Shown here: piece by piece, positions 1 to 40,123 of the stretch
Layout of the letters: each line of letters opens with the position of its first letter
How positions within the stretch are numbered: position 1 is the stretch's first letter
Assembly: GCA_036924285.1 (NCBI GenBank)
Contig: JAYKYS010000015.1
Span: forward strand, 2,542,001-2,606,000
DNA: 64,000 nucleotides
DNA from: Asterella californica
Taxonomy: Eukaryota > Streptophyta > Marchantiopsida > Marchantiales > Aytoniaceae
Direction: 5' to 3'
Notes under the pieces: model-generated
Told to the model about the DNA's origin: nothing
What the model saw: the letters and a program-made list of their open reading frames with translations, nothing else
The model's database searches: none
Program-made: the position numbers and the translations under genes

Positions 1-2078
1 ACATTTCGGACGGAAGTCACTACGTAGTCACCATGTTTTCTCAGCGACTGAGACGGGAGGGAAAGCATGGGACAAGCTACCACACGATGATTAATAATCG
101 TCAGGATGAAACCTGCGAATCGATGGTCGATAACCTCCTCCTCGAATAGTTGCATATCGCAACATGTCTCTATGCTGAGCAATTGCTAGGTTCTCAAAAG
201 CTATAAGCATAACTCTCCAAAATGTCTCTACTCGTTGAGAATATGCTCTCATTCACATATCCGGGTCATCAAGGTTCAGCACCTCAGCAGAATCACAACG
301 AATGACCGAAGGTAGATTTGGATCTCGATCATACAATAGAAAATACGATGAGAAGGAAGCTAAAGATGCTTGTCGACTAAAACGGTAACCCATAGCCAAC
401 CATGATAACTGCACATCCCAATCTCTCAAGTGGTTCTTCTACAAGCCATACTTGCGCAATCCTCTCTTCACCGTTTGAACTATCCTCTTCGCCAAACCAT
501 CCGTCTCAAGATGATCTAGAGATGTAGTCCAATGATCAATCAGCGTCTGATCACACAAGGCTGAAACTCACCAAGGAACTTTGTACCTTGGTCTGTAAGC
601 ACTTCAGCTGGTGCTCCAAAACGACTCAGCACTTGATCTAAGAACGCACACGTCGTCTTTTCACTCGCCTTGTCCAATAATACCACCAACTCAATCCACT
701 TGGAGAAGTGCTCCACCATCACCAACACATACCGATGATGACGTATAATCAACGATAAGGTTCCCGCAAACTCCAACAATAATCCAACCCCGTAATCGAT
801 AAAGGATGTAACTATGGAGTAAGAGTATTAAATGATGCTCGTACTCGATCACAAACCACACATCGTGCGACAAACTGTTGCACATTGATGTGCATACCAC
901 GCCACCAATACTGTCCTTGGAGTAAGCTATGCGTACGCTTCACTCCAAAATGTCCCAACTCCTCATGGGCATGTCGTACTAATTGTGCCCTCTAGGATGA
1001 ATGTGACACTATCTGTACTCTCTCATCACCCCACACTCGAAATACATGTCATCCTTCTCGTCGAAATCTCTTCGCTCGTTGAAGAAAACGATCTCGCTCC
1101 TGGCACTTACTGTGCCTACCACCATGTCAATACATAGACACATCGTCGTGGATATCTCACTAGTCTGGGACACCATCTCCACTCTCAGGATCTGGAGACT
1201 CATTATCTACTATATGACAAGAGAAAGATACGACTTGGCCCTCCATACTAGAGTTCATGGCCAACACACAAAGAAAAGTAGATGCATGCCACCTTGGCAC
1301 TATCTCCTCATCAACCTCGTCATGTCATCGAGACTAGTCTGATCCTGCTGACTCGTGCATGGGTTACGACTCAACCCATCGACATCTAGGTTTGTAACTC
1401 CAGGTCTATGCACTACCTGGAAGTCATACTCCTGTAAGACCAGAGCCTATCGTGCAAGCTTCCATGTAAGCTTGTCGGAGCGGCTGGTGATCAGTGAGTA
1501 AAGATGTTCTCAAACAAATAACGTCGGGAGTGTGCAACAGTCCACACTGCAGCTAAACACTCCCTCTCGTCTCCGCCTAATTGGTTGAGCGACTGACGTA
1601 CGTCATCACAAACTCCTTTTTCTCATCATCATGCTGAGTCAGCACTGCTCCAAGTCCTAACACACTCCAATCAGTGTGCAGTTGGAAAAGACGTCCCTTA
1701 ACGGGTCTCTTCAAGATGGGAGCAGATGTCAACTCTATCCTTGAGCTCTACAAAAGCTCGCTCCTACTCATCTCCCCACTGCCACTCCTGGTCCACCTTC
1801 ATCAGCTTGGTCAATGGCTTCGCAGTTGCACTAAATTCTTTCACGTATCGACGATAGAAGTTCACCAAACCAACAAATGTCTGAACTCGACTCACATTTG
1901 TGGGACGTGAGATACATGCAATAGCCTCAACTTTCGTCTGTTGAACACCCAACCCACCTGGGTAGATGGTGTGGTCCAGATACTCTACCAACTCTTGGAA
2001 GAACTTGCACTTCTCAGGGTGTAACTTCAACCCATGAGCTCTCAACTGCTCGAACACATCCAGTAAGTGTCTCTCTTT
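1..2078 (-). mobile_element. Remnant of DNMT/PHD-type Ty3/gypsy element (copy 1)
   Basis: From about position 101 to 2078 this stretch matches, with many substitutions and indels, the element at 29.27-31.75 kb in the same orientation. It holds the RT C-terminus, RNase H and integrase on the minus strand. The match ends on the right near 2078, where an LTR of another family begins, and on the left near 101, so neither the methyltransferase nor the PHD finger seen in the other copy is present. The first 100 bases match nothing else that I can see in the window. LTRs are not identifiable. It is an old, immobile fragment. Confidence 0.8.
101..2057 (-). pseudogene. Decayed gypsy pol: RT C-terminus, RNase H, integrase
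   Basis: Read on the minus strand, 2057-1764 encodes the end of a reverse transcriptase: the thumb motif LHPEKCKF, then NFYRRYVKEFS and AKPLTKL, as in Ty3/gypsy RTs. RNase H and the zinc-binding part of integrase follow in broken frames (about 1700-860). The integrase core at 779-540 keeps the HFSKWIELV and LTDQGTKF blocks, that is the second catalytic Asp region, but the segment around the first Asp is corrupted. The frame is broken by stops and indels throughout, so it cannot make a working protein. The assignment rests on motif order and on the better-kept copy at 29-32 kb. Confidence 0.8.
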
Positions 2079-3225: not shown

Positions 3226-3576
3226 GAGGTTGATGCTTTCATCAACAATGATCCTTAAGTTAACACCAAGTTCAAATGAAGAGCCAACCCCTTGGCGTTA
3301 GAATCGCGTTCTGGTAGCTAACCCGCAATTCTCTTCTTGGCTTGAGTCTTAAGTTGTCGCCACTTAGAAAATTCTAACTAGTCTCGAGAAAAGCCTTATC
3401 TTTTTGGCCAACCCTAAACATAACTAGTTGCAATTTCTAAATATTCTACTTAAGACTCTAACTTGCTAATTATAAGTATTCACACCTACTTACGCGATCT
3501 CTCGAAACTCATTTTCTGGTCGCAACCTGATTTGACTTAGACGCGCGACTAAGTTTACTTTGCAGTTAGAAAACCG
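3226..3576. other. Flank of the solo giant LTR; no gene seen
   Basis: This stretch and its continuation at 9474-9664 were contiguous before the giant LTR inserted between them. By position it would be internal sequence of the fourth gypsy family (upstream of the polypurine tract on the minus strand), but I found no recognisable domain in it. Confidence 0.4.
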
Positions 3577-4827: not shown

Positions 4828-4938
4828 AATGTGTGTACACTGTCTCTCACATGTGTCTCTTCAGTGTGCACGTACAGTAATGTGTGTACAATGTCTCCAC
4901 ATGTGTCTCTCCAGTGTGCACGTACAGTAATGTGTGTG
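4828..4938. repeat. Tandem 50-bp repeat in the solo LTR
   Basis: Two near-identical units of about 50 bp (4828-4877 and 4878-4927), each running from TAATGTGTGTACA to GTGCACGTACAG, followed by the start of a third. It lies in the last quarter of the LTR. The other giant LTRs have only a weak counterpart (around 53.08-53.15 kb), so the duplication is probably specific to this copy. Confidence 0.75.
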
Positions 4939-5223
4939 AAATCTTACTCTGTATCCTAACTTATACTACTACCTTGAGGCGCAGAGGAGATCCCCTCCAA
5001 TCCTCAACTTGCAATCAGGAAGATGAGAGACTGTCATAAGGCCACCACCTCACATGCAGTCGGCTCTCTGCTTTGGTTTAGAAACTTACTTTCTACTCAT
5101 GGGCTGCCTACTCTACCACATGGACAATTAGCTAAATTTACAAGAGAAACTGTCATTTCCCCAGATAGTAAATTCCGACTCCTACCAAAATTAGACAAGT
5201 CAACTGTCTTCTTAACTTGCTGC

Positions 5224-7508
5224 CTACTCTAATTCGATGGGTGTGATCCCCTCCTGATCTACTCCTACCTGAACTCCTAATTCGGCTTCTGATAAGATGG
5301 AAAGTCCTGCTAGTACCTCGGGTGTGACTGAGGTGGCTTCCTCCTCTTTGTTCGTGGCTTGCTCTTCTAGGACGGCTTCGGAAAACGAAAGCGTCTTCTG
5401 AGAAGCTGATTGTGCTTCCTCGCTCTTCTGTGACACCGGTTCGACGCTGGGAGCTGGGGTGACTTCGCAGTGGTCCGAGGAAGTCACCCCTCCACTCGAA
5501 ACACCTGGGAAGACAACTCTACTTCCTGTCTTCCAGAAAACACCTTGTCTTCCGGGGCATCTTCCACGGTCTTCTCCGCTTCCAACGCTATCACTACCAA
5601 GTGGACAGCGAGGTCGAACTCCTCCTTCTCCAAATCTGTCTCAATCGCTGGTCCTGGAGCATGAGAAGACGTAGCTGCCGATCGTGGGATAGAGAGAAGA
5701 CCGTAAAGTGTCTTCAAGTCCTCAATCTGCCGATCCAGGTAGCGGAACATGCTGTTCTTGCACTCCACTAACATCGCTCTGGAATCGTCATCCTACTCCA
5801 TAGCTAGGGTGAGAAGCTTCCTACCCGCGGTGAAGTTGAACTTCTTGCGAAGTGCTTCCACCGACTGCGTCATGAGTCTATTCGCTCGGGCTTCTGCTTC
5901 TTCTCGCTGCGTCTTCTTTGCTGCAGCCTGTGCTTCTACAGCTTCTCGCAGTGCCCTCCATGTCGTCTTCTCTTCTGCGAGAGAGGTGATCTTACCTCTG
6001 ATCCGCAGAACCTCCTGATCACGCTGCTGTAGACGTGCCTGCAACTCTTGGTTGCTCTTCCTCAACTGTGCTAACTCCTTGGCAGAAGCGGCTGCTTTCG
6101 CCTTGTACCTCGCTGCAAGCTTCTCCGTGGTGCAGAGGTTGGCTTCCAGCGCGTCCACCTTCTTCTGGATCTCTTCCTGCTACATCAAGGTGTGCAGATC
6201 GAATCCAGGTTGCAATGGCTTCTCCTGAGCCATCGCGCGTTTCTCCACCAACTCCATGGTTGGCTGGATCTCTGAGTGGAAGAAGACGCTGAATTCCTCC
6301 AATCTTCTTCTCGCGGAAGACAGGTTAATCTCCACAATCTGATCGGAGATGTCTTCCAAAGATAAGGATGTCTCTTCCACCACTGTGGTCTTCTGCTTCT
6401 ACGTACGAGAAGACGCTACTCTTCTCATTTTCCGGGGTGGAAGATCACTTCTCACTGCAGGAGCGGTTCTCTTCGCTGCACTTCCTCGAGTCGTAGTTGA
6501 GATGTCAACCCATACTTCGGCTTTTGGAGTCTTTGGAAGATTCTCTGTAGTTGCAGAAGCTGTCTTCTGCGTAGTTTTGGTGCTCAGCGTCTCCTCCTGT
6601 GAATCCGATTCCGATCCAGGATGAATGATCAGGAAAGATGTGCTCTTCCTAGGCACACTCCTAGTCTTCATCTTCCTCGGTGATGACGCGTCTTCCGTAT
6701 CGCTGGAGTCGTCTTCTCTCATCAGAAGCGTCTTCTGATGAGTGCCCGGTCTCGTCGGAAGCATTAAAGTGGGAGGAGGAGTCGCGGCTGCTACTCGATC
6801 GTCTTCTCCCGAGGTCGCTTCTTTCACCTCGCACTGTCCTGTTGGCCCATACCTTGCCAACAGGTCTTCTGTCAAGTCCTCTTGGACACGTACCGATAAT
6901 AGAAGAACAGGGTGAGGTGTCTCCTGCTGGGGTGCCCAAGTACACCAACTCTACCTGAACGTAAGCGTTGAAGAAGGCGCCCCAATTGATAGGCAGCTTC
7001 TCCCAGATGGTTTCCAAGAATTTCACGTCCTGATCTCCAAGGTATCTCGTCTTTTGTGCTTTCCCCTTGGGTAAGAGGTGAAGAAATAGCTTCGTCAGAA
7101 GATGCTTCCGCGGCTTCCGCGGCTCCCGGTACGCTTCTACCTTCCATCCATTCCTTCCCTGTCTATCTTCCAAGAAGAGGCAAGTCGTGCTTCCAGGCAC
7201 ATGTCATTTTCTCGAGATCATGGGTAAGATTTTCTTCTCGAGCTCATATCCTCGGTTCTCTGATTCTGGTCTATGAAAGACCCTGCGCCACCACTCCGTC
7301 GTCCAAGAAGATGGTCTTCCACGAGCTACTCCTGCCTTCGCAAGTACAAGGTTGCGAGGAGGCAGTGCTGCCCAAACTTCCTCCAGAAGACCCTGGTCCG
7401 CGAGGTTCCAGTCCCACCGGAAGAAGTCGAGACCCAACTCCTTGATGAAGGGTTTGACCTCTGCCAACTCTGCTGCCGGCAACACTAACCTCGAGGATGC
7501 ATCGACAT
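5224..7508 (-). pseudogene. LTR-borne coiled-coil protein ORF, decayed copy A
   Basis: Sense-strand reading frame inside the solo LTR, from an ATG at 7508 (MSMH) to a stop at 5224. A one-base loss in the first codons after MSMHPRG and several later frameshifts and stops split it into at least six pieces. The pieces keep the order of the family protein: an N-terminal domain of about 180 residues (LADQGLLEEVW, CLFLEDRQGRNGW), a Ser/Thr- and acid-rich linker, a basic block (PPRKMRRVASS), a long helical coiled coil (TEKLAARYKAKAAASAKEL), and a C-terminal acidic tail. I do not recognise the N-terminal domain. In layout it resembles plant gypsy accessory ORFs annotated as putative plant transposon proteins, but that is only a resemblance. 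Confidence 0.75.
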
Positions 7509-21451: not shown

Positions 21452-24400
21452 CTACTGGGGTGGGGTTGAGTCCTGCTGTAGATGTATTCTAGGTCCACTC
21501 ATCTTGTGTCCAATTGCAATTGCACTCGGCCTATCAAGCCATGCCAAACACATTGCTGCCGTCCACGAAAAGAGCTCACCACCGCAGCTTTGACCGGTTT
21601 TTGGATCGAAGTACTCTCCCAGCCCAGCATTGCTGGTCAAGGCTACGGAATCGTCGTATATCCTCTGCGCGAGGTCGTCATACCTGCAAGGAAACAAGGT
21701 CGAGAAACACCGTTATGCTTAAATTGTAAAAACTCATAACTGTTTAATCAACCATGATCGAGTTTCACTTGCCCGGCTGATTCAGAATTTTGCATTTGCG
21801 CTCCAGATCGAAGTCTTTGTCAAAAGCAATACAAAATGGCGTCAGCATATGTGTCAGTGAAAGAGTACCCGTAATGCAGCAGACCATTGAAAATCATCCA
21901 GTTGATTATAATCCACACAGGTCCTCGCCAGTATCTTAGCGGTTCAAAACGAGGATCTCTTGGGTCTGTACTCGGTACACCAAAAGGTACTTTATCTAAC
22001 CATTGCTTCAGACTTTCAACCAGCTTAGCGGCCTGCTCCGTTGACGCCACACCTGAACGGCCAGTTATTTTGGCAGGAGTTATAGTAAGTGAGTACAAAG
22101 TTACTACAAACTATTACTCCTCGTTCAACCGGCAGACCTACAGAAGTGTAGCAGCAACAACATACTCAACTATTTATATTTAGTTTAGCTTTAAAATTTG
22201 ATACCTGCAAACAACGGGAGAAATGCCGCCGACGTTGGAGCATCTGCAAGCTTTCCAGTAAGCTGATCCTGACATTTGTAGATACCAGCATCCTCATCCC
22301 ACAACTGTTTGAATCCCTCGAAGCCTCTCTCAAGCCACTCGTCTATCTCCTCAACGACGTCATTTCTCCCTAGCTTCATGGCCAGCCATCTCAAATCTCG
22401 ATTCGCGCGGAAGAGAATACTGTTGGTGCAAAGATCTGTCATTCGGAAGGGAGACATCCAATACAGCTTGCTCGAATCATAGAAATTTTCAGCTTTGAAC
22501 CTACCAGCACCGTAACAAGGTTAGGATCATATAGACCAAAGCCGTTTTCCGTTCTACTACGTACAGTATCTTTGAAAGTTCTTGGTGAGCACAAGAAGCA
22601 ATGTTGGATGCCACAGGTAACTGACTTCTGGTGATCTGGATGTCACACCAGATCAACGAATTCTCTACCTTTAATCAGCTGCACAAATCAAATGCAAATT
22701 TGAACACAAGTTGAATCTGACCTGTACAAGAGAGTCAGATAACGGTCGTAAGTCTCTTTCGTCGGTCGCATGCAAGCATTCACATGGTGCAAGTCCTTCC
22801 GTTCATATGGAGGGATGTTGTCAACTGGGAATTGCAAGGCTGCATCCCATGCTGGGCTATTATCCATCCCTGACTCCCATGGATGTAGAATAGCAACAAC
22901 TCCCTTCTTCTCTGGATCTCTAGCCTGTGGATCATACAAATTCTCAAGAGATCCATCAGTCAGTGAGAAGAAGTGGGAGACCACAGTTAGGAGTACTACT
23001 TAAGAGTATACACGTACGTATTGAATGTATTACTTCCATACTAATTCCACTTTAGTTTATTTCTAGTACATATGCAAGGCTAGGGACTAGAATCACATCA
23101 ATTTCTCTCTGTAACACACTACTCTTGTATAAGTACCTTGTACCACCATCGATGTGAAGCGAGTAGCTTAGGGAAAAGTTCGACCATCTTTTGCTTGGCG
23201 AGTTCCCCGTGTTCTGTTTGCTCAAACAAGAAGCGTGCAGATATGGAAGCTACTGGGGGCTGCGTGATACCAGTGCTCCTGCTTGGAGACCCAGGATGGC
23301 CCCAAATTTCTGGACCTGGAAAGTATGTTGCTGATGGTCTATGGAAGATGATCGATGGCACCATTCCATCTTCCCATTGCCCTGAGAAGAGCGACTCAAG
23401 TTCTTGCCACGCTCTCGCTTCATCAAACACGGCCCATCCAGCCGCCACGATCGCAGAATCCCAGTTCCACTATCAGTTCAAGTGAAAACAGTTAGTAGTA
23501 TACTAGATTTACAGCTTCGATAAAACCGAATTCGTAAGCACCACATGGAAGAAATGTTCATAAATATAGATGCAAGTGATCACTACCGATAGTCTCTACC
23601 TGGAATGGATACAGGTTGTGCGCAGGAATCGTATAACCACCATAGTCGTTTCTCCGTAAACATTCGATAGACTCTTCCACGATATGTAGTCTTGCACTGT
23701 CTTCCAGTTTTTCTTCAGGTTTGCTGCAGAATGGCACAGATACCAGTCTTAATAACCTACTTTATGATTATTCTCAGTTGTTTTACAAACACTACTTGCA
23801 AGAATTTTCAGTCTCAGGGCCGGGAGAACCATATGTAGCAAGAAAATGTTGAAAGAAGCCAGATCAAACTGTCATATGATATCTCGAAAGCAGAATATGC
23901 GAAGTTATTACTCCATTCCAGTAGGGTGTCTTTGCTTCAGATTTACTTTTTTACTAATCCGTAAGGTTAGAAGGAACAGAATTCCAAAGGTTTTAAAAAA
24001 CTGTCCATCTGCAACAAATAGGTTGAAAGATACGCTCAGCTACGTAACACTCTATACTTGTTAGACAGTATAAGGGCGATCAAAAGCTCACAAGGCGTTA
24101 ACGAAAGTACAAGTTACCCACCAGATCTAGTAAATTTGTCCAGACTAGACCGGAAACAAACATCAAGTAGGCAAACTCGCAGGCGGCGTGAAAGCAAGTT
24201 ATTCTTGAACATCACAAACATGGGCAGCTTGTCAACTCCACACTTGTATCTTGTACACTAGAAGAATCCCACTGAAAGTACACCACACAAACCAGATGTC
24301 CATACTGTAACATGCGCTTTTTCCCCTTGACGACAAAGACGACGAGGTTCACTAATCGCACTCCGCGAGTATCCAAACTCAGTTACACGACACACTTGCT

Positions 24401-28270: not shown

Positions 28271-28750
28271 GCTGTCGTGCACATACACATCGTTACACCA
28301 CACATACACCATAACACATGGACGATCTCATACACATACACAAGTGTATCACAATTAGTGATAAACGCTATGTCTCACTCACGGGCACTAAACAATCACT
28401 AAAGTCGAGCCAAATTCACTCTGTGCTCGCAGAGACTCCAGATTGCACTCACAAAAACTATCCACCATAGCTAGGAGCTTGAAGGCTCAACCTGAAGAAC
28501 TAAGGCCTCCAAGCCTTACCTGCGAAGTATACTCCTAGTGGGCTCTCTCACCAACTCGTCCTAACGACACTAACGGTCTTACTAGGATTCGTCACTCCGT
28601 ACTCGACCAACCTAGCCGAGGTGCCTAAACTGACGTGAGAGCTGTCGTGCGCATACACATCGCTACACAACATACACAGCTATCAGAGATACACCACACA
28701 TACACATAACACATGGACGATCTCATACACATACACAAGTGTATCACAAT
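28271..28750. repeat. Direct repeat pair about 370 bp apart
   Basis: 28271-28355 and 28641-28750 both run from GCTGTCGTGC to CACAAGTGTATCACAAT, with an extra ~25 bp in the second. Both share the ACATGGACGATCTCATACAC block. They may be an internal duplication of the LTR of the DNMT/PHD element. Confidence 0.7.
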
Positions 28751-28921: not shown

Positions 28922-29941
28922 CTATATACATCGAGGACAAACCCACTGTCCAATAAGAACAACACTGAGAGGTGGAGTCAAACATGACATGTGCCAATCT
29001 CTAGAACAATCATCACACACCGACATACAGGCTGCTCCACCAACAGATCCACACAACATACTCCTCAAACCCGCACGTACAACTACTAAGCTTGGGTCAA
29101 CGATATCATCGATGTTGGTCGCGCAATTACGCACATGGTCCTTCCAAACAACACCATCACGGCCCTCTAACATGAGAACTCCAGAAGGTAACATCTCACG
29201 CACTCGTAAAATAGTGCACCATGCGGTCACAACCAACGTCGTTGGTGCAGTCTACTGCAAATAGATATAATCGTCAGGATGAAACCTACGAATCGATGAT
29301 CGATAACCTCCTTCTCGAATAGTCGCATATCGCAACGTGTCTCTATGTTGAGCAATCGTTAGGTTCTCAAAAGCCATAGGCATAACTCTCTGAAATGTCT
29401 GTACTCGTTGAGAACATGCGTTCACTCACATATTCGGGTCATCAAGGTTCAGCACCTCAGCAGAATCAAGACGAATGACGGAAGGTAGATCTGGATCTCG
29501 ATCATACAATAGAAAATATGATGAGAAGGAAGCCAAAGACGCTTGTCGGCTAAAACGATAGCCCATAGCCAACCATGGTAACTGCACATCTCAGTGGCCC
29601 TTCTGCAAGCCATACTTGCGCAATCCTCTCTTCACCGTCTGAACTACCCTCTCCGTCAAACCATCCGTCTCAGGATGATCTCGAGATGTAGTCCGATGAT
29701 CAATCAGCGCCTGATCACACAAGGCTTGAAACTCATCAAGAAATTCTGTATCTTGGTCTGTCAGTACTTCAGCTCGTGCTCCAAAACGACTCAGCACTCG
29801 ATCTAAGAACGCATACGCCGTCCCTTCACTCGCCTTGTCCGGTAATACCACCAACTCAATCCACTTGGAGAAGTGCTCCACCATCACCAACACATACCGA
29901 TGGTGACGTACGATAAGGGTCTCGCAAAATCCAAACTTCAA
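28922..29941 (-). pseudogene. Integrase core, C-terminal domain and PHD finger
   Basis: One frame from 29941 to 28922 with three in-frame stops. Core: VLVMVEHFSKWIELV, EVLTDQDTEFLDEF (second catalytic Asp), TSRDHPETDGLTERVVQ (catalytic Glu). Then YRFSRQASL, FENLTIAQHRDTLRYA and RRFHPDDYIYL, the region after the core, then ILRVREMLPSGVLMLEGRDG, a small beta domain at the usual position of the integrase C-terminal domain. Last comes a PHD finger, CDDCSRDWHMSC and GQWVCPRC, with zinc ligands C-x2-C-x4-H-x2-C and C-x2-C. The first Cys pair is damaged: SMLC stands where C-x2-C is expected. PHD fingers often bind histone H3 tails, so by analogy with chromodomains it could steer integration. That role is inference. 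Confidence 0.8.
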
Positions 29942-30038
29942 CGGTAATCCAATCCCATAATCGGTAAAGGGTGTAACTGTGGAGTAGGAGCATTAACAAT
30001 GCTCGTACTCGATCACAAATCACACATCGTGCGATAAA

Positions 30039-30668
30039 CTACTGCACATCGACATGCATACCACGCCACCAATACTGTCCTTGGAGTAAGCTATGCATAT
30101 GCTTCACTCCAAAATGTCCTAACTCCTCATGAGCATGTCGTACTAATTGTGCCCTCTGAGCTGGATGTGGTACTATCCGTACTCTCTCATCATCCCACAC
30201 TCGAAGTACATGTCGTCCTTCTCGTCGAAATCTCTTCGCTCGTTGAAAGACACGATCTCGCTCCTTGGCACTTACTGTGTCTTCCACCATGCCAGTACGT
30301 AGATACTCCATTATAGTCACATCGTCATGGATATCTCGCTGGTCTGATACACCATCTCCACCCTCAAGATCTGGAGACTCATCATCTACTCTCTGACCAG
30401 AGAAAGATACGACTTGGTCCTCCATACTAGAGTTCATGACCAACACACAAAAAAAGATAGATGCATGCCACCTTGGCACTATCACCTCATCAACCTCGTC
30501 ATGCCATCGAGCCTCAATTTGATCCTGCTGACTCGTGCATGGGTTACGACTCAACCCATCGACATCTAGATTTGCAACTCCAGGTCTATGTACTACCTTG
30601 AAGTCATACTCTTGTAAGATAAGAGCCCATCGTGCAAGCTTCCATGTAAGCTTGTCGGACTCCATCAA
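30039..30668 (-). pseudogene. RNase H end and integrase HHCC zinc domain
   Basis: Starts with LTWKLARWALILQEYDF and VVHRPGVANLDVDGLSRNP, the typical end of gypsy RNase H. An acidic linker of about 90 residues follows, then HAHEELGHFGVKHMHSLL and QYWWRGMHVDVQ, the His-His half of the zinc domain. A stop at 30039 precedes the Cys-Cys half (ARCVICDRV). It belongs to the same polyprotein as the flanking RT and integrase. Confidence 0.82.
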
Positions 30669-30762
30669 CCACTTGAGCGGCTGGTGATCAGTGATGAGAG
30701 TAAAGGGTTCTCAAACAGATAACATCGGAAGTGTGCAACAGCCCACACCCACAGCTAAACAC

Positions 30763-31240
30763 ACAGGTAGTATTATTTGCATATTGAAATTTGCACCGTT
30801 TTGACCTTTTTCACTCATGCTGTTGTTTTCTCTTTGCTCCACGGTTTTGACCAGTTTGCAGTTGATGATGAGTGGATTGTATTGTTCAGCTGGGTAAGGC
30901 AAGTTGGGCACAAGAGTTCGAATTCAAAGCAATGATGTTATAATCATATTCTATCATACCTTCACGGCCGTGAGAAAAGCACAAGCACAGCTCTGGAGTC
31001 TAGATCCCATGGTGAGCTCGAGGTAGTGAGACTCACCGTTTCATACCTCCGATACCCACAGTATGACCTCACGACCTGCTCCCATGCCCAACCCACGTGA
31101 TCGATCAAGTAGTATAACAAGTAGGAAAGCTGTAGAGTGAAGCACACGAAAGCAGCAAATTTCACTGTATTCCAAGGCAAAGAAAATATGATTCAACTTC
31201 TAAAGGAGTTTCCTCACCGTCACGAATATGCATCTCTGTA
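30763..31240. other. 478-bp insert in RNase H, unknown origin
   Basis: Copy 1 of this element is continuous across this point (around 1555-1570), while copy 2 has about 478 bp extra, flanked by element sequence on both sides (ends approximate). It has no LTR features. On the minus strand 31180-30962 reads 72 codons with a hydrophobic stretch (FAAFVCFTLQLSYLLYYL). It could be a captured host fragment or a small unclassified transposon. I do not recognise it. Confidence 0.5.
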
Positions 31241-32446
31241 TCTCGTCTCCGCCAAATTGTTGGAGGGACTGGCATACGTCATTACAAACTCTTTTTTCTC
31301 ATCATCATGCTGAGTCAGCATTGCTCCAAGTCCCAACATACTCCAATCAGTGTGCAGTTGGAAAGGACGCTCCCTAACGGGTCTCCTCAAGATGGGAGCA
31401 GATGTCAACCTATCCTTGAGCTCTACAAAAGCTCGCTCTTGCTCATCTCCCCCACTGCCACTCTTGGTCCACCTTCATCAGCTTGGTCGATGGCTTCGCA
31501 ATGCACTAAACCCTTTCACGTACCGACGATAGAAGTTCACCAAATCAACAAATGCTCAAACTCGACTCACATCTGTGGAGCGTGGGATACGTGCAATAGT
31601 CTCAACCTTCGTCTGTTGAACACCCAACCCACCTGGGTAGATGGTGTGACCTAGATACTCTTCCAACTCCTGGAAGAACTTACACTTCCCAAGGTGTAAC
31701 TTCAACTCATGAGCTCTCAACCGCTCGAACACATCTCATAAGTGTCTCTCGTGCTCCTCCACAGTAGCACTATAGACTAAGATGTCGTCAATATAACATC
31801 TGACAAAATCCAATCCAGCTAGGATCTTGTCCATCACCCTCTGGAACTCAGCAAGGGCGTTCTTCAACCCAAATGATAAGAACTGTCATTGATACAAACA
31901 ATCCTTGCCGTGAGAGTCAATTCCCCAGAATGTTGTCTTTGACTTATCTTCTTCTCTCACTGACAACTGATGATACCCTGCTCGAAGATCCAAAGTACTG
32001 AAGACCTTCACATGCTCCACTGCATCAAAGTTCTCCTCAGGTGTCGGCATGGCATACTTATCAGACTTTGTCTACTGATTGATAGGACGATAATCTCCAC
32101 ACATCTGTCTATTCGTGTAGTTGCCATACATATCCTTCTTGGCTGACATAACTGTGACAGATGCATACTCTCCATGCGACATCTCCACCAACCCAACCTC
32201 CAACAAGTCTTGAGTCCTACTCTGGATCAAGGCTCTCTCCATGTCATTGTACCTGTAAAGACGTCGAAAGATTGACGTGTCATTAGCCAAGTCGATCTGT
32301 ATACCAAGTCCCTTCAAGGTACCCAAATCCTTCATACTGAAGGCAAAACAATTCTTGTAGCTCTTCAGGAATCTCTGAACTCTTCGTCTCTCCTCTCTTA
32401 TAAGCTTGGGTCCAATCTCCGGCTCCCAAGCATCCTCTGTCACCAT
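31220..32446 (-). pseudogene. Reverse transcriptase and start of RNase H (DNMT/PHD family)
   Basis: RT begins after MVTEDAWEPEIG: KNCFAFSMKDLGTLKG, then CGDYRPINQ, a stop, FSTLDLRAGYHQLSVREEDK, SFGLKNALAEFQRVMD, and the active site CYIDDILVYS at about 31.77 kb, followed by LHLGKCKFF and NFYRRYVKGFS. RNase H starts at ERPFQLHTDWSMLGLGAML (31408-31220). Motif order and YxDD are standard Ty3/gypsy. Several in-frame stops and at least one shift make it non-functional. The sequence is colinear with copy 1 at 1-2 kb. Confidence 0.85.
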
Positions 32447-32542
32447 GCTAGAGGTAGAAGATGAAGTCGTTGACTGCTATCTTGCAGCCTCTGGAGCAGT
32501 TTCTTTCTGCTCACCACCAACAACCTCCACCGCTACTGTGCG

Positions 32543-33534
32543 TTAAACTTTTGCAGTTCTAGCTGCAAGCTCCACACTCTCTCTTACGACATCCCATGAT
32601 GTCCAAGGATGACGAACTCCACGCGCCTCACCTCCAGTCTTTGCCTCCACCGATCCGGTAGGCAAAGAGCTTAGGAGTGTCCAAGCAGTAACACCCGTCG
32701 ATCGCATCCGACGCTGCTCAGCCAATCCAAAGCTAACAATCCATGTCAAGCAGTTCAAGTCCATTGCTTGATCCAACACTTGACGTCGTGAAGTCTCTGA
32801 CACCGAAGCTACTGCCGTCGTACCCGTAGGAAACCCCATCGCTCTCTCTCTCTCATCGGTATTGGACTCCACCAACTGCCGTAATTGAGCATCCCACACA
32901 AGCCCAGGTCCTCCATCTCTGTAAGCATGTGACACTGGAAAGCTCACCAAAGTGGGTAATGCTACCATGGCCGTCCCACTAGGTTCATCACTGCCATGGG
33001 TGACTTATCGACGAGTCTCACTACTTGAGATCGTCGTCCTGCATCCAAGATGCTATCAACCGTGAGGTGCGCTGGTCGTCTCACTCCATCGTGTGAGCAC
33101 TTAAGCACCTCTCTCGGTAACAAGTTCGTCCACCACAATCGTGGACGATGTGCACGAGATCCTACTCTCGCTGCATTCAACAACACTGCCGGTCCAACCC
33201 AAGACCGCACTTGGTGCACATTTGTCATCACCTGTGTACGAGCATCACCCAACAAAGGAACGGTCTCCAAGATGTACTCTAGAGAATCCACCTGATGCAT
33301 CTAGAGATGTCGTAAAATCCGTAACATCTCTCAGAACATCCTAGATCGCGGGTCATGTAAACCCTGATCTCTCTCAGCACGCGTGTGACCTTGATATGAC
33401 CACCCGGCTATCACCAAGTGAATGATGTCAACAAATGTGAGATCCTACGCCTCCAGCAGCAAAATATCCGACGGTAATGCTTGCTGATATCCTCTAACGG
33501 CTAATATCGACAACAACTCAAGATATCTTTCACT
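32543..33534 (-). pseudogene. DNMT3-like cytosine-5 methyltransferase domain in gypsy polyprotein
   Basis: On the minus strand the C-terminal two thirds of a C5 methyltransferase can be followed: LVIAGWSYQGHTRAERDQGL where the PC(Q) loop belongs, SLEYILETVPLLGD in the place of the FLENVVAM motif, NAARVGSRAHRPRLWWTNL matching the DNMT3 block that ends in AHRARYFWGNLPG, then ERERAMGFPTGTT and QVLDQAMDLNCLTWIVSF matching the ERVFGFP and LGRSWSVPVIRHL motifs. The catalytic Cys codon is replaced by Tyr (33394-33396), there are stops at 33445, near 33341 and 33301, and a shift near 32965. Motif I is lost at the truncated end. The frame continues into RT through 32543 (stop) and a Ser/Thr linker, so it was a polyprotein domain. 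It would have methylated cytosine in DNA; this copy is dead. Confidence 0.82.
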
Positions 33535-34560: not shown

Positions 34561-35165
34561 ACTTCAAGCTCTGTTACACTAAGCCACATGTACTTACTGT
34601 GAGCCGAAGGCTCAGTCTTTCCCAAGTCCTCACAGTCTAGCTTCCACTCTCAGAAGACGAATCTAGTCTTCCAGAAGACAGCTATTCCGTCTTCCGGGAT
34701 TCAAATAGTGCTTCCTAAGTACCTCTCGTCTTCCGAGCTATATCTAAACAATCTTAACTAAGCAAGGCATCGCATGGATTCTTAAGAAGACAACCCACCT
34801 TGCATTTCATCCTACTCCCTAACAGAAGATAAAAGATATGCGAGAAGCAGAGTGTATGAAAAGTTCAGAAGATGGTCGGGGACTCCTGCTGTGACAGTGG
34901 CCTCCAGGAAGACTCCCGTGACAACTTCTGATTCAGTGACGTTCTCGGAAGACTTCCCACAACCAGGCTTCCCTTCACTGGTCTCACCTTATCTTCTGCT
35001 TCCAACATACAATCTAACCTCATAATAGACACAAGACATTCATACTCTGTTCTTTCGATTTCTCACCTCTCATACACACTCAGAAGAAGCTTGCTGCATG
35101 ACAGGAAGACATGACCCTCGACCATTCTCTCCAGATTCTGCCAGCAATGCTTCTCACAACTCTCT
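33535..35165 (-). mobile_element. Giant LTR fragment in the 3' LTR position of the 35-46 kb element
   Basis: Matches the middle of the giant LTR. On the right it is fused to RNase H coding sequence at about 35165 (ACTTAGAAGAG-type LTR sequence directly after GATGCAGA of pol), and on the left it ends at about 33534 against the methyltransferase. The deletion removed the rest of RNase H, integrase, the polypurine tract and the first part of the LTR; the last 1.6-2 kb of the LTR is also gone. Confidence 0.8.
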
Positions 35166-36592
35166 TCTAAGTTCTGCATCACTGAGTTGTCTTCCCGCGT
35201 AGTAGATGGGTAATCCTTCTTCTTCTCATCTTTCTGACTCAACACCACCCCGATGGCAAAAGCAGAAACATCCACATAAATGTGGAAGACCCTTTCCCAA
35301 TCAGGCGGCCGTAGGACAGGAGATTCCGACAGAAGCCTCTTCATTTCTTCGAATGCTTCCTGCTGCTCAGAAGACCAAATGTATGGTTCGTCTTTCTTCA
35401 GCAACTTAGTGAGTCTTCTTGCTACCTCTGCGTACCTGTCAATAAACCTCCGGTAGTATCCTACGTTGCCAAGGAAGCTTCTCAACTGTGTCAGGTTAGC
35501 AAGTGGGTGGAGTTTCATGATGACTTCCACCTTAGCACAGTCGACTTCTATACCTCTTCCGGAAATCCTATGTCCTAGCAAGATCCCCTCTGACATACCA
35601 AAGAAGCATTTCTCAGGGTGAAGTGCCAAACGATGTTCTCTACACTTCAGAAAACACTTCCTCAGAAATATCAAGTGGTCTTCTCTCGATCCAAACACAC
35701 AGAAATCATCCAAGAAAATCTCCATAAAGGTGCGAAGATACTCCTTGAAGATTGTAATCATCAACCTCTGGAACGTGGCTGGTGCGTTGCATAAACCAAA
35801 CGGCATTTGATTGTATGCGTACGTGCCCCAATCAGTAGTGAAAGTGGTTTTCGACTTGTCTTCTTCTCTGATTGAAACTTGGTTGTACCCAGAATACCCA
35901 TCTAGGAAGCTGTAGAACTCATGTCCTGCTACCTGGTCTAACACAGAGTCGGTGAATGGTAAAGGGTGATGATCCTTTTTCGTGGCCAAGTTCAGCTTCC
36001 GGAAGTCCTGACACACTCGGATCTTCCCTGTCTGCTTCTTCGGCGCGATGACAATGGGAGCTACCCATTCACTGCTAAGTACTGGGAAGATGACTCCTGC
36101 CTTCAGGTATTGGTCAATCTGGTCCTTCACCAGAAGCGAGTACTTGAGGTTGAGCCGGTACTGCCTCTGCCGTGCAGGAACAACGCCTTCTAGCAAGTCG
36201 ATGCGATGCTCTCCCAATTCTCGAGGTATGCCCTTCATGTCTTCTATGGTCCACGCGAAGACATCCTGGAACTCTGTCAGAAGTTCTCGAAAGTCTTCCA
36301 ACTGCTGGCCCTCGATCACCTTGGAAAGCTTCAGCTTCTTCCCAGGAGCAACCTCCATCTCTTGGAGATCATCCGGGTTCACCATTCCTTCAGTGTGACT
36401 GTACTCACTAGCACCGAAGTATTTCGTTTGGGAGCTTCTTCTAGTTCGGATTCGTCTTCTGGAAGACCAACTGTCGGGTCTTCCGAAGGGAAGACGGTAT
36501 TCTCGTCTTCTGAAAGACCAACTATCGGATCTTCCGAAGGGAAGATGGTATTCTCGTCTTTTGGAAGCTCTTCTTCCGCAATCTCGTAGCAC
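35166..36592 (-). pseudogene. Reverse transcriptase and start of RNase H (Athila-like)
   Basis: Open frame on the minus strand with RT motifs in order: FAWTIEDMKGIPRELGEHRI, YRLNLKYSLLVKDQI, GKIRVCQDFRKLNLATKKDH, FYSFLDGYSGYNQVSI, TDWGTYAYNQMPFGLCNAP, MEIFLDDFCVFG (active site, two Asp), ALHPEKCFF, ILLGHRISGRGIEVD, LRSFLGNVGYYRRFI. RNase H starts at HIYVDVSAFAIGVVLSQKDE and is cut at about residue 45, running on into LTR-derived codons to a stop at 35063. The RT frame differs from the protease frame by one phase and overlaps it by about 210 bp. The RT part itself has no stops, so it is fairly recent. Confidence 0.88.
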
Positions 36593-37476
36593 TCAATGTA
36601 CCCACAGACCACATCGTCCACTTTCTCTGCTACTTCTGTAGCACACACGTTATTCACCAATAACTCATTATACCGTTCATCACTGTCAGAAGACGCAGCC
36701 GAGTCTTCTGAAGTGTCCCCCTCTGTTGTAGACGGAGTTTCACCTTGGTGTCCAATCTTGATCCAAGGAAGCGAGACTTTACTCTTCTCACCAGACTTGG
36801 ATGTAGGATTGGGAAATCTCAAACGATGCCTTCTCCAATCGGTATTCACATTTGCAGCATACAGCCATGGTCTTCCTATCAACACCTGATATCCAACCTT
36901 AGCTACAGGTCGCAAAATGATGTAAGTGAGGTAAAAAGATACTCCACCAATTACCGTCAAGACATCTTTCAGTTGCCCCAAAGGTCGTCTTCTGGTCTGG
37001 TCCGCCATTCTGAGAATTCTCGGAGTAGGCTGGAACTCAGTGAAGCCTAGGGCATGCGCCGTTTCTTCCGTCATGATGTTAACTCCGGAGCCGGAATCAA
37101 TGGGTACCTTCTTCAGAAGACAGCCATGGATCTCCATATCAAGTTCTGGGGCTCCCAAGTCCTCATGCTCTATCCTTAGGATCGGGGTGCTCGTGGGAAG
37201 TTTAGCTGCCCTCCTCTTCCTCGATCCTCGAAGCACAGATTGTAACAACTTCCTGTAACCAGCGTTGTCATCCAACAGCTGTTGGAAGGTCACATCCGCC
37301 TTCTGATTCCACAAGTCTCGCAAGAAGTCGTACGGAGATCTTTTCAGAAGAGTGACCGGTGTTTCCAACAGAGAAGATGTAGTAGCTGCTTCCTTGGATG
37401 GAAGACCAGAAGAGTGTCTTCCCTCGACTGGAGGCTGTTCTCGTGAGACAGGTGTTGCCGTAGTCGGTGTAGGAAG
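36379..37476 (-). CDS. Aspartic protease region of Pol, in frame with gag after one stop
   Basis: The frame is the same as gag and starts directly after the gag stop codon (TAG at 37479-37477), with no ATG of its own near the start, so it would be expressed by stop readthrough or the stop is a mutation. The protease core is KKVPIDSGSGVNIMTEE (catalytic Asp in DSG), followed by VGYQVLIGRPWLYAANVNTD. The C-terminal end is acidic and contains a 17-residue duplication (ENTIFPSEDPIVGLSED and its twin), ending at 36379. It would mature the Gag-Pol polyprotein. Confidence 0.75.
   Translation of the reverse strand, partial: LPTPTTATPVSREQPPVEGRHSSGLPSKEAATTSSLLETPVTLLKRSPYDFLRDLWNQKADVTFQQLLDDNAGYRKLLQSVLRGSRKRRAAKLPTSTPILRIEHEDLGAPELDMEIHGCLLKKVPIDSGSGVNIMTEETAHALGFTEFQPTPRILRMADQTRRRPLGQLKDVLTVIGGVSFYLTYIILRPVAKVGYQVLIGRPWLYAANVNTDWRRHRLRFPNPTSKSGEKSKVSLPWIKIGHQGETPSTTEGDTSEDSAASSDSDERYNELLVNNVCATEVAEKVDDVVCGYIECYEIAEEELPKDENTIFPSEDPIVGLSEDENTVFPSEDPTVGLPEDESELEEAPKRNTSVLVSTVTLKEW
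36452..36553. repeat. 51-bp tandem duplication in the protease-RT overlap
   Basis: Two units (36452-36502 and 36503-36553) with a few differences, followed by about 10 bp of a third. The period is exactly 17 codons, so both the protease and the RT frames stay open through it. The unit contains GAAGAC/GTCTTC motifs. Confidence 0.85.
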
Positions 37477-39777
37477 CTACTGTACTATCTTCCGTCTCTT
37501 CTCCAGCTCTTCTTGCATGATCGCTTCAACCTCTTGTCTTATGTCAGGAGCAAAGTACTTCGGATCTTCTCGGTCGTAAGTAGGAGAAGACGGCCGCTCG
37601 AGAGAAGATGACCTCTCCTTACGCTGCTTCTTCTTCTTGACGTCCTTCTGGCGAGATTCTGACTTCCCTTTGCTTCTGGTACTTACCTTGAACACAGCTT
37701 CATCCAAAACTTCCTCCGGAGGCCAACTATCTGAATTCGGGTCAGGATTCCAAACAGTACCATCCGTCAAAGTGAGAGATGACGCTTCTTCAGGTGTCTT
37801 CATCTTCTGAGCTGCAGTCGTCTTCTGCAACTGAGGTTCCTTTCCTTCGCGCTTCCCGGGGTCTGGTTCGTCTTCCTCGATATGGAGACAATCCGTACAA
37901 TCCCCAAGATCTTCTTCTTCTACCGTGATGTGCTGTACCACTGCTAACTCGAGCTTAGAAGATGATGCAGCTTCTGCAGGAGGTGTGGTATCTGCAAATC
38001 TCACCATTTGTCGTGGTCGTAAGGTCTGAGGACAATTCCCTGTGAAATGATCGGCTTCCTTACAGTTCCCACACAAGGGCACTTGCCCAATCTGTCTTCT
38101 CGGGTGAGGACAGGTGGACCACCAGTGTCCTGTCTCTCCACAATTATTGCACGCTCCAGGAAGAGGGTTGAGAGGTCGTTGTGATGGAGAAGGCTGCCAA
38201 GGCGTCCTGGTCTGTACATTGCTAGCTCTATCCCTCGGTACATAACGATTATATTGGGCGGGAGGCGTAGGAGTGAAGGGTTGGATCGTTTCGATCCTAT
38301 AGCAGGTTTCCCCACTGGGATCGTGCAGATATCCCTCATCATCTTCTTCCCATCCTGCCCAGTTGACAGCTTGGTCCTGCGTACACTGATCTCTAGTGTG
38401 TCCAGAAGAGTTACAGAGGTTGCACCAAAGGTTTGGCCGGGAAGCTGTAGGCTGCTTCCGCTTGTCCTTCTGGTTCAGAAGATGAACTTTCAGGTCGGCA
38501 AACTGCTTCAGAACCTCATCGATGCGGGGATCAGGTGCAGACTGAATGATCTGAGTTTGAGGCATCTTCTGCACAACTTCCTCCCCTGCTCGCGTCTTCT
38601 CCTTCTTCTTCTTCCGCGTCTTCTTCTCTTGTTCAGATTCGGATTCTGAACTTTCGACAGTAGACTCTTCAGAAGTAGAGGCTGCTTCCGAATCACTGTT
38701 ATCAGTTTCAGTGGACCTGGACTTCTTCTTGGACTTCCGGGAAGACTTCTTTGACTTCTTGGACTTCTTCGAGGTCTTCCTTTTATCTTTCGTCATATTC
38801 CGAGTGATGCTCGAGGTTTCATACTGCTCGGCATGCTTCTGTACTTCTGCTAAATCATCACCTCCTCCTCTTCTGCAGTACAATTCCATATCGTGAGACA
38901 ATCCTCCCAAGTACCAGTCCACAGCTTGCTGAGCACAGTAGCCGGGTCTTCCTTGGTTCTGAGGGATGTGATCCAGGAGGTCTTCAAACCTCTCGGTGTA
39001 ATCCCGCAGTGTCTCTTTCTTCTTTCGTTCGAGCCTCTGAAGCTCTATGAGGGTCATACGATCGTAGCCCACTCCTCTGAATCTCTTCAGAAAAGCTGCC
39101 TTCAGAGTAGCCCAAGCGGCCATTACTACAACATCATCCAACGTTTTACTCATCCACTTCCTTCCTTTCCCTTTGATCAAACTGGGAAATACACGGAGTC
39201 TGTCAACATCAGCGTCTTCCTTGTTGGATCTAGAGATGGTCTCTAACATCGTGATGAAGTCATCCGCATCATCATCATCGTCGTACGGATGGTATTTCTG
39301 CCGAGTGTGGGAAGCCATGTTGACTGCCGGCTGGTGCGACTGCCAACTTCTTTCTTCCTCAGGTCCAGGTGATGGAGATGGTCTTCTCGAAGATCCAGGC
39401 CTGTCTGAGTCACGAAGATCGTCTTCTGAGTCAGAGCTACTATCACTGCTACCTTCCGAGACGTCTGGAACAATCCCCTCCAGTCTTCCCTCACCTTGAG
39501 AAGCTTCTCCCGCACTTGGGAAGACGTCTTCCGAGTAACCAGTACCGAAATCTACTTTATACACGTGATCACCCGGTTGGCTTCTGTCTTCGCCAAAGAT
39601 TATGCTCGAGATGGAAGGCTCTTCCAACTCTACCGATCGGATCTTCCTGAGCTCTTCTTCTTTTCTTTGGTGTCTCAGGGATATCCGCTGCTCTCTAGAA
39701 GCGGTTCGTTGGGGTGAGTTTACCCACTCAGGATCTTTACCCGTGCGTCTTCTGCTTCTTCCTCCGGTCGGAGGCAT
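37477..39777 (-). CDS. Gag polyprotein with three CCHC zinc knuckles (766 aa)
   Basis: Uninterrupted frame from ATG 39777 to TAG 37477, the first long frame after the PBS. Residues 1-230 are charged and Ser/Asp-rich. A capsid-type retrotransposon Gag domain follows (LRVFPSLIKGKGRKWM, WATLKAAFLKRFRG, LQRLERKKKETLRDYTERF, YLGGLSHDMELYCRR), then a Lys/Ser/Glu-rich stretch (KKSKKSKKSSRKSKKKSRS) and three knuckles of C-x2-C-x4-H-x4-C: CNLCNSSGHTRDQC, CNNCGETGHWWSTC, CGNCKEADHFTGNC. The C-terminus is basic. It would assemble the particle and bind the genomic RNA. Its full length and lack of stops suggest this insertion is fairly young. Confidence 0.9.
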   Translation of the reverse strand: MPPTGGRSRRRTGKDPEWVNSPQRTASREQRISLRHQRKEEELRKIRSVELEEPSISSIIFGEDRSQPGDHVYKVDFGTGYSEDVFPSAGEASQGEGRLEGIVPDVSEGSSDSSSDSEDDLRDSDRPGSSRRPSPSPGPEEERSWQSHQPAVNMASHTRQKYHPYDDDDDADDFITMLETISRSNKEDADVDRLRVFPSLIKGKGRKWMSKTLDDVVVMAAWATLKAAFLKRFRGVGYDRMTLIELQRLERKKKETLRDYTERFEDLLDHIPQNQGRPGYCAQQAVDWYLGGLSHDMELYCRRGGGDDLAEVQKHAEQYETSSITRNMTKDKRKTSKKSKKSKKSSRKSKKKSRSTETDNSDSEAASTSEESTVESSESESEQEKKTRKKKKEKTRAGEEVVQKMPQTQIIQSAPDPRIDEVLKQFADLKVHLLNQKDKRKQPTASRPNLWCNLCNSSGHTRDQCTQDQAVNWAGWEEDDEGYLHDPSGETCYRIETIQPFTPTPPAQYNRYVPRDRASNVQTRTPWQPSPSQRPLNPLPGACNNCGETGHWWSTCPHPRRQIGQVPLCGNCKEADHFTGNCPQTLRPRQMVRFADTTPPAEAASSSKLELAVVQHITVEEEDLGDCTDCLHIEEDEPDPGKREGKEPQLQKTTAAQKMKTPEEASSLTLTDGTVWNPDPNSDSWPPEEVLDEAVFKVSTRSKGKSESRQKDVKKKKQRKERSSSLERPSSPTYDREDPKYFAPDIRQEVEAIMQEELEKRRKIVQ

Positions 39778-40123
39778 CCACTAGAGTACTGAGAACAGAT
39801 GTCTCTCTTTTCTCTATCACTAGATCCGGAAGACCAAATGACTGAACAACCGATCACAAGTTCATAACGTCTTCTTCTCCTGCTTCTGGTTGCACTCACT
39901 GCAATCTTCCGAGATCGAGTCTTCCAAGGAGTTCTTGGAAGCAGGGAAGCGGCTTCTTCCAACTTCCCTTGGTGTATCTTATCAGCTTCTGGTTGCGGTT
40001 TCCGTCTTCTAGCAAGATAGAGTCCCACAACACATTCAACTACAATCGAAGTTAGTTCGAAACGAACCTAACTAATGGCACACAGATCCAGGAAGCTTAG
40101 AACAGAAGTTACTAAGATGAAAT

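What the first reader, a model, noticed from the sequence alone, without database searches (positions are those of the whole stretch)
28922..33534. Gypsy polyprotein combining a DNMT3-like DNA methyltransferase, RT/RH/integrase and a PHD finger
On one strand and in colinear order the element encodes a C5 cytosine methyltransferase, RT, RNase H, integrase and a C-terminal PHD finger. Methyltransferase and RT share one frame, and integrase core and PHD finger share one frame, so these are polyprotein domains and not neighbouring genes. A transposon that carries a DNA-methylation writer and a chromatin reader could mark its own DNA or choose its target chromatin. I recall a 2018 report (de Mendoza and colleagues) of methyltransferases inside retrotransposons of dinoflagellates and charophytes; whether that family also has a PHD finger, and whether land plants have it, I cannot say.
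Basis: partly seen in the sequence, partly recalled or inferred. Interest (0 to 1): 0.92.

Follow-up and report, generated by a model that had tools for sequence, protein, structure and literature searches.

The report
Retrotransposon with DNA methylase and PHD
This stretch is the decayed remains of a jumping gene whose relatives, some of them intact, carry both a DNMT3-type enzyme, which would write DNA methylation, and a PHD finger, which would read chromatin, a pairing that likely helps the element mark its own DNA and choose where it lands.

Summary
On the minus strand, 33,534-28,922 is a decayed Ty3/Gypsy relic with methyltransferase (MT), RT, RNase H, integrase and PHD in that order. Pfam misses the MT here; a family profile finds four colinear pieces. 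Gag, protease, MT motif I, the catalytic Cys and one PHD zinc ligand are lost.

The family is real: three searches gave 201 relatives, named hosts including Marchantia, Riccia, Calypogeia, Sphagnum, Closterium and Haematococcus. L017 is intact: gag-PR-MT, UAG, RT-RH-IN-PHD. The MT is DNMT3-type by profile and fold. PHD follows integrase in 8 of 8 MT-found proteins long enough to show it.

Not found in print (ten searches, open-licence library): bryophyte hosts, the PHD, two gene orders that split the MT tree at 100/97 (six long-branch rows left out), and a UAG-CARYYA between MT and RT in both window and L017. The nearest published family, KnitGypsy-Dnmt3, was described as acquired in the Klebsormidium lineage; its main text has no 'PHD'.

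Self-methylation and chromatin targeting are inferred; some sublineages lost the MT or its catalytic residues.

The parts
33334..33534 (-). MT pieces 1-2 (profile positions 33-76 and 79-115 of 323; motif IV degraded to AGWSYQGHT); the profile match of piece 1 runs on weakly past 33534 into the neighbouring repeat
   Evidence: family profile E 0.0011 and 6.4e-12; motif reading; repeat break at 33526-33534
32965..33300 (-). MT piece 3 (profile 128-237; motif VI as ILETV, motif VIII GSRAHRPRLWWTNL), one frame off from piece 4
   Evidence: family profile E 2.8e-40
32543..33004 (-). MT piece 4 (profile 235-323; motifs IX-X, DERERAMGFPTG)
   Evidence: family profile E 1.8e-40; query region
32471..32479 (-). 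UAG-CARYYA (TAGCAGTCA) between MT and RT parts; predicted read-through stop
   Evidence: same place as TAGCAATCA at L017 3489-3497
31559..32476 (-). reverse transcriptase in four ORF pieces
   Evidence: family profile E 4.1e-23, 7.8e-19, 2.9e-18, 2.5e-7
31220..31474 (-). RNase H, first part
   Evidence: PF17919 E 2.6e-18
30763..31240 (-). 478-nt insert splitting RNase H, absent from the copy at 94-2075
30039..30710 (-). RNase H end and integrase H2C2 zinc domain
   Evidence: PF17917 E 7.2e-8, PF17921 E 5.7e-10
29429..29992 (-). integrase core
   Evidence: PF00665 E 1.1e-11; family profile E 1.8e-44 and 0.0013
28922..29251 (-). integrase tail and PHD finger (PHD proper about 28928-29065), first zinc Cys lost
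   Evidence: PF00628 E 4e-7; family profile E 2.8e-15; ligands SCCCHCCC
28271..28750 (-). 3' end with a repeated block (28641-28750 and 28271-28355) in a B-A-B pattern; possible terminal repeat
   Evidence: 46 nt at 100% and 38 nt at 87%; 28634-28672 resembles L017 7023-7063 only weakly (78%, E 0.013)
94..2075 (-). second, truncated copy of the same family (RT end to integrase); no MT in it, PHD would lie off the window
   Evidence: 87% over 1514 nt and 90% over 512 nt to the main copy

Best explanation
The stretch 28,922-33,534 (minus strand) is a decayed, 5'-truncated copy of a Ty3/Gypsy retrotransposon family that carries a DNMT3-type cytosine methyltransferase and, on the tail of its integrase, a PHD finger, and that likely uses the first to methylate its own new DNA copy and the second to steer insertion into chromatin whose histone H3 tail lacks K4 methylation. 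Shown here: the domains and their order, the family and its spread, conservation of catalytic and zinc residues in most relatives, and a UAG-CARYYA stop between the MT and RT parts in two diverged copies. Inferred: leaky reading of that stop would give much Gag-protease-MT and little RT-integrase-PHD, so that the MT rides in the particle with the cDNA; the PHD, at the place where chromoviruses carry a chromodomain (recalled), would tether the integrase to nucleosomes.
For: Order of domains in the window. P0066 holds RT-RH-MT-H2C2-rve-PHD in one ORF. L017 holds gag-PR-MT and RT-RH-H2C2-rve-PHD as two same-frame ORFs split by one UAG. MT nearest solved kin: DNMT3A E 4.7e-24, against 4e-11 for the best DRM-like entry and 1.5e-7 for HhaI; the 50 listed fold matches are all DNMT3 entries. 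Catalytic Cys in 96 of 98 rows with a letter at that column. PHD after integrase in 8 of 8 proteins found by MT queries with 230 or more residues left, 96 of 96 over all searches; eight zinc ligands in 126 of 126 rows. PHD kin include UHRF1, KDM5, PHF21A, CHD4 and AIRE, which I recall as readers of unmodified H3; Gly in 117 of 126 at the column I take, by recall, for the K4me3-cage Trp. MT and pol trees agree on the two gene orders.
Against: No activity, binding or insertion-site data here. The 2018 yeast assay found no methylation by the KnitGypsy-Dnmt3 MT and its authors call that inconclusive (passage). Five proteins in the RH-MT-IN clade lack the MT between RNase H and integrase yet keep the PHD (P0137, P0157, P0162, P0192, P0197). 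P0105, P0109 and P0124 keep an MT-like domain with broken catalytic motifs. The bryophyte PHDs lack the acidic stretch of the KDM5-like ones (P0020 against P0066). UAG-CARYYA is not enriched in the window as a whole, and L017 has a second match on its other strand. The window copy is dead.
Confidence: 0.55

Rival explanations
1. Same element, but the MT serves self-restraint: by methylating its own copies it invites host silencing and so keeps damage low, while the PHD is a general nucleosome anchor without preference for a mark.
For: In the 2018 paper CHH and CHG methylation is found on silent KnitGypsy-Dnmt3 copies. The window copies carry a transition-rich decay (165 to 38) and raised TpG/CpA (1.28 against 1.07 for the window), as methylated DNA would.
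Against: CpG in the element is no more depleted than in the window (0.747 against 0.708), and host enzymes methylate plant repeats anyway, so decay does not show who methylated.
Confidence: 0.22
2. The PHD reads H3K4me3 and directs the element to active promoters.
For: Many PHD fingers do so (recalled); the fold alone does not decide.
Against: Gly, not Trp, stands in 117 of 126 rows at the column I take (recall) for the cage; nearest solved kin are recalled mostly as unmodified-H3 readers.
Confidence: 0.1
3. The MT is now a structural or passenger domain, as in DNMT3L, and only the PHD matters for the element.
For: MT absent in five proteins of one clade that keep the PHD; broken motifs in P0105, P0109, P0124, the last standing for 58 member sequences.
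Against: Catalytic Cys in 96 of 98 rows with a letter there; motif VI Glu in 105 of 111 and Asn in 104 of 112.
Confidence: 0.1
4. Separate relics of unrelated genes that lie side by side by nested insertion.
For: The window is dense with nested repeats.
Against: P0066 in one ORF, the intact L017, and matching splits of the MT and pol trees.
Confidence: 0.01

Closest known systems
KnitGypsy-Dnmt3 of Klebsormidium nitens (de Mendoza et al. 2018, PMC5890265; passages and section 9 seen)
   Same: Gypsy element with a Dnmt3-related MT in its coding region; the legend of Fig. 4 gives it DIRS-like repeats, and the window's 3' end shows a B-A-B repeat pattern.
   Different: Described as an independent acquisition in the K. 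nitens lineage, with no PHD in the main text. Here: liverworts, Sphagnum, Closterium and chlorophytes, PHD on the integrase, two gene orders, UAG-CARYYA. Its sequence could not be fetched, so it may be the same family.
SymbioDIRS-Dnmt3 and SymbioLINE-Dnmt of Symbiodinium (same paper)
   Same: Retrotransposons with a C5 methyltransferase; two domain orders were also seen among SymbioDIRS-Dnmt3.
   Different: DIRS and LINE elements, tyrosine recombinase or endonuclease in place of DDE integrase, no PHD mentioned.
Chromoviruses (Gypsy elements with a chromodomain after integrase; recalled)
   Same: A chromatin-reading domain on the integrase tail.
   Different: PHD, not chromodomain, and a DNA methyltransferase.
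Ginger1 DNA transposons (PMC2836005, passages)
   Same: Gypsy-like integrase; one listed family (Ginger1-9_HM) has a PHD in the C-terminal part.
   Different: Cut-and-paste DNA transposons of animals, no RT, no MT; the PHD comes with a Ulp1 protease.
DNMT3 enzymes
   Same: Catalytic domain of the same type by profile and fold; a histone-reading zinc domain paired with it (ADD, recalled).

Membership tests
Ty3/Gypsy LTR retrotransposon | RT-RNase H-H2C2-DDE integrase in this order | tested here: met
   window, L017 ORF2
Ty3/Gypsy LTR retrotransposon | gag and aspartic protease upstream | tested here: inconclusive
   absent from the truncated window copy; L017 ORF1 has them by family profile, with Pfam protease and zinc-knuckle matches below cut-off
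Ty3/Gypsy LTR retrotransposon | two LTRs, primer site, target-site duplication | tested here: inconclusive
   5' end lost; 3' B-A-B repeats only; L017 ends overlap by 127 nt, so read as a circle with one repeat unit
DNMT3-type C5 methyltransferase | motif order I, IV (PCQ), VI (ENV), VIII, IX, X | tested here: met
   met in relatives: 55 of 83 proteins of the first two searches have motifs I, IV, VI and VIII all alignable, 53 of these with Cys and EN; the window copy lacks I and has broken IV and VI
DNMT3-type C5 methyltransferase | closer to DNMT3 than to DRM, DNMT1, DNMT2 or bacterial enzymes | tested here: met
   profile against PDB sequences; fold; no tree with host DNMTs was built
PHD finger | C4HC3 zinc ligands | tested here: met
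   126 of 126 relatives with the columns filled; window 7 of 8
KnitGypsy-Dnmt3 | Dnmt3-type MT within a Gypsy element | tested here: met
KnitGypsy-Dnmt3 | DIRS-like repeat structure | tested here: inconclusive
   3' half only
KnitGypsy-Dnmt3 | MT under purifying selection (Ka/Ks) | not tested
   DNA of intact copies at hand only for L017; protein identities only
KnitGypsy-Dnmt3 | groups with the K. nitens copies in a tree | not testable with these tools
   no K. nitens row was named in the lists (76 of the 196 hits not listed); the window's own genome could not be searched
Chromovirus | chromodomain after integrase | tested here: not met
   no chromodomain in the Pfam scans of L017 ORF2, P0066, P0082 and P0085

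The most novel reading that the evidence does not exclude
A clade of Gypsy elements spread over green algae and bryophytes, older than land plants, runs its own reader-writer chromatin system: a particle-borne DNMT3-type enzyme, made in excess ahead of a leaky UAG, writes CG methylation on the new copy, while a PHD on the integrase picks H3K4-unmethylated nucleosomes. It is a split counterpart of DNMT3's ADD-methyltransferase pair.
Probability: 0.3. Interest if true: 0.88.

Novelty: new variant of a known kind. Interest (0 to 1): 0.72.

Why it matters
[quoted passage not shown] Here the family reaches liverworts and peat mosses, and its integrase ends in a PHD in each of the 96 proteins long enough to show it. 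If the two domains work, these elements write an epigenetic mark and read chromatin at once, and could be studied in Marchantia and Volvox, where laboratory genetics exist (recalled). They also bear on how DNMT3-type enzymes spread among genomes.

Tried and rejected
Pfam and NCBIfam on the window MT: no hit, and dcm at E 0.25. PDB search with MT piece 3 alone: no DNMT among 17 weak matches. Viral contigs with the MT alignment: 16 loci with weak C5-methyltransferase matches, not followed. Genome contigs: 7 loci, six of them actinobacterial with weak matches, and L017, filed under a cyanobacterial MAG and taken as eukaryote contamination by its content. Viral contigs with the ORF2 alignment: none of 126 candidate stretches confirmed. 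Codon-position test on the two window copies: differences 68 of 621, 61 of 623 and 64 of 625 at positions 1, 2, 3, so no trace of selection between them. CpG of the element is not more depleted than that of the window, though TpG/CpA is higher. The PHD identities printed pool hits too widely (lengths 376-377) and are not used. Ten literature searches listed no paper that I could see to describe a PHD together with a DNMT in Gypsy elements, or DNMT-Gypsy elements in bryophytes; for most listed papers only title and abstract start were seen, and the library holds open-licence papers only. Chromodomain membership: not met. Host of the window: not identified.
Full report
What is there. Minus-strand ORFs in 28.9-33.5 kb give PHD, integrase core, H2C2 and RNase H by Pfam above curated cut-offs. 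The MT and RT ORFs give none. The plain three-frame reading shows MT motifs in order: IAGWSYQGHT, YILETV, GSRAHRPRLWWTNL, then one frame over DERERAMGFPTG. Profiles made from relatives find four MT pieces (positions 33-76, 79-115, 128-237 and 235-323 of 323), RT in four pieces, RNase H in parts, H2C2, integrase and PHD; no MT, PR or gag match elsewhere in the window.

State of this copy. It is dead: stops and frameshifts (37 stops in the one-frame reading 33004-28922, inserted and out-of-frame parts included), a 478-nt insert in RNase H, no gag, protease or MT motif I. It breaks off at 33526-33534, where another repeat family, with copies near 6.5, 43.0 and 51.5 kb, begins. Motif IV has lost its Cys, motif VI its Asn, the PHD its first Cys. 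A second copy at 94-2075 is 87-90% identical and also truncated. The two differ evenly at the three codon positions and mainly by transitions, 165 to 38: neutral decay.

Relatives. One search (MT C-part of the window, 24 hits), search 2 (intact MT of P0003, 66 hits; only the 7995 candidates sharing most words were scored) and one search (integrase tail and PHD of L017, 196 hits, 120 listed) gave 201 different proteins. Named hosts in the MT searches: Marchantia polymorpha, Riccia sorocarpa, Calypogeia fissa, Sphagnum jensenii, S. fallax, S. troendelagicum, Closterium sp. NIES-54, Haematococcus lacustris. The PHD search added Volvox reticuliferus, V. africanus and Tetrabaena socialis. One hit (P0022) is filed under a Spirochaetia MAG, read here as contamination.

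Architecture. Local profiles on all 201: 58 proteins hold both RNase H and integrase; MT lies between them in 24, before RT or RNase H in 4 (P0034, P0082, P0148, P0182), and is not seen in 30. Of 23 of those 30 that show RT, most begin within about 190 residues of it, so an MT in an ORF1 upstream would not be seen. Five that fall in the RH-MT-IN clade (P0137, P0157, P0162, P0192, P0197) have only 206-230 residues between RNase H and H2C2 and so lack the MT there; P0192, which runs from the protease on, has none before RT either. PHD follows integrase in 96 of 96 proteins with 230 or more residues after it; 88 of these came from the PHD query, but the 8 from MT queries are unbiased, and 8 of 8 have it. 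P0066 carries RT-RH-MT-H2C2-rve-PHD in one ORF; P0082 begins inside the MT and runs through RT-RH-H2C2-rve-PHD.

An intact element. L017 (9285 nt) has identical 127-nt ends and so reads as a circle. ORF1 (8582 across the join to 3491) is gag-PR-MT, with PF00145 at E 6.8e-12; ORF2 (3492-6635) is RT-RH-H2C2-rve-PHD. They share a frame and are split by one UAG CAAUCA. The window has UAG CAGUCA at the homologous place, 32479. That context follows 2 of the 1715 TAGs on both strands of the window and 1 of 101 TAGs on the plus strand of L017, so the shared place is unlikely to be chance, although the motif is not enriched in the window (2 found, 3.39 expected) and L017 has one more match on its minus strand. 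That CARYYA favours read-through is recalled. 34 ORF1-like proteins with the MT complete on its C side end 6-181 residues after it, in line with a stop there; some are spliced gene models and some may be contig ends. P0060, P0070 and P0082 run from MT into RT without a stop.

What the MT is. Profile against PDB sequences: DNMT3A 4.7e-24, DNMT3C 8.9e-23, DNMT3B 4.9e-22, then 4onj 4.1e-11 (named only DNA methyltransferase; recalled as a plant DRM), HhaI 1.5e-7, DRM2 2.6e-6, DNMT2 0.0039. AlphaFold model of P0005: mean pLDDT 83.2; the 50 listed Foldseek matches, of 192 with E up to 0.001, are all DNMT3 entries, best E 7.8e-18. Catalytic Cys: 49 of 50 rows with the MT before RT, 38 of 39 with it between RH and IN, 9 of 9 unplaced. 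These counts leave out rows with a gap at that column, among them P0105, P0109 and P0124, whose motif IV is broken.

Trees. MT tree of 86 rows (under 90% identical to each other; six long-branch rows left out: P0148, P0188, P0082, P0174, P0182, P0168, three of each order): the two gene orders lie on two sides of one branch, 100/97, in 100% of 200 bootstrap trees; 12 rows had no order assigned; the window lies with Marchantia, Calypogeia, Sphagnum and five unnamed rows (13 rows, 100/100). In the quick tree with the six rows kept the split is less clean: B needs 3 changes and A 10, unassigned rows counted as others. Pol tree of 55 rows: the 22 RH-MT-IN rows and the five without MT form a clade with SH-aLRT 100; the window groups with its second copy, Marchantia P0051, P0087, P0086 and L017. 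So MT and pol have travelled together for long, with one change of place or two captures; these data do not tell which.

PHD. All eight ligands in 126 of 126 rows with the columns filled, of 128. Nearest solved kin by sequence include Cph2, CHD4, PHF12, UHRF1, KMT2D, KDM5, PHF21A, ATXR5 and AIRE. Gly stands in 117 of 126 at the column I take, by recall, for the K4me3-cage Trp. This points to an unmodified-H3 reader but does not show it; the bryophyte row P0020 lacks the acidic stretch seen in P0066.

Against print. De Mendoza 2018 (PMC5890265: passages, the whole of section 9) describes KnitGypsy-Dnmt3 as an independent acquisition in the K. nitens lineage; 'PHD' occurs 0 times in its main text. 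A 2019 review (PMC6338049, passages) reports DAM- and DCM-encoding Ty3/Gypsy and DIRS elements in green algae and charophytes among others and says they are not present in land plants, such as tracheophytes. A 2025 paper (PMC12344493, passages) cites streptophyte and dinoflagellate cases only. So a DCM-bearing Gypsy in green algae is not new as such; bryophyte hosts and the PHD are what I did not find in print, within the ten searches made.

Mechanism. Best reading: ORF1 puts the MT with Gag in the particle; the MT methylates double-stranded cDNA; the PHD on the integrase tethers the complex to H3 tails without K4 methylation. All three steps are inferred. The window copy itself has no function left.

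Noticed in passing
P0078 and P0082, C-terminal to the PHD: A further domain with DPWAGSG- and SPWF-like motifs, perhaps an amino-methyltransferase fold; Pfam gives only N6_N4_Mtase at E 0.27 for the P0082 piece.
   Followed up: partly
P0105 (Volvox reticuliferus), P0109 (Tetrabaena socialis), P0124: MT-like domain kept between RNase H and integrase with broken motifs IV and VI; P0124 stands for 58 member sequences. Possibly a catalytically dead, DNMT3L-like version.
   Followed up: partly
P0137, P0157, P0162, P0192, P0197: Elements of the RH-MT-IN clade that keep the PHD but have no MT between RNase H and integrase.
   Followed up: partly
window 94-2075, minus strand: Second truncated copy of the same family, 87-90% identical.
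   Followed up: yes
window 35063-39780, minus strand: Another Gypsy element with long open gag, protease and RT ORFs; no MT or PHD match.
   Followed up: no
window 21820-23469, minus strand: Exon-like pieces of a mannosylglycerate-hydrolase-like glycosidase (PF22422, E down to 1.1e-29), a likely host gene.
   Followed up: no
window about 3.6-8.4, 33.5-35.2, 40.2-47.6 and 49.6-56.3 kb: Many mutually similar repeats, 75-90% identical over up to 4.9 kb; one of them adjoins the broken 5' end of the relic.
   Followed up: no
window 30763-31240: 478-nt insert in RNase H of the main copy, absent from the copy at 94-2075; origin not worked out.
   Followed up: no
P0022, P0111, P0142: G-patch domain (PF01585) between MT and integrase in P0022; listed as precomputed for the other two.
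   Followed up: no
L017 and P0022: Retrotransposon sequence filed under a cyanobacterial MAG and a Spirochaetia MAG; likely eukaryote contamination of those records.
   Followed up: no
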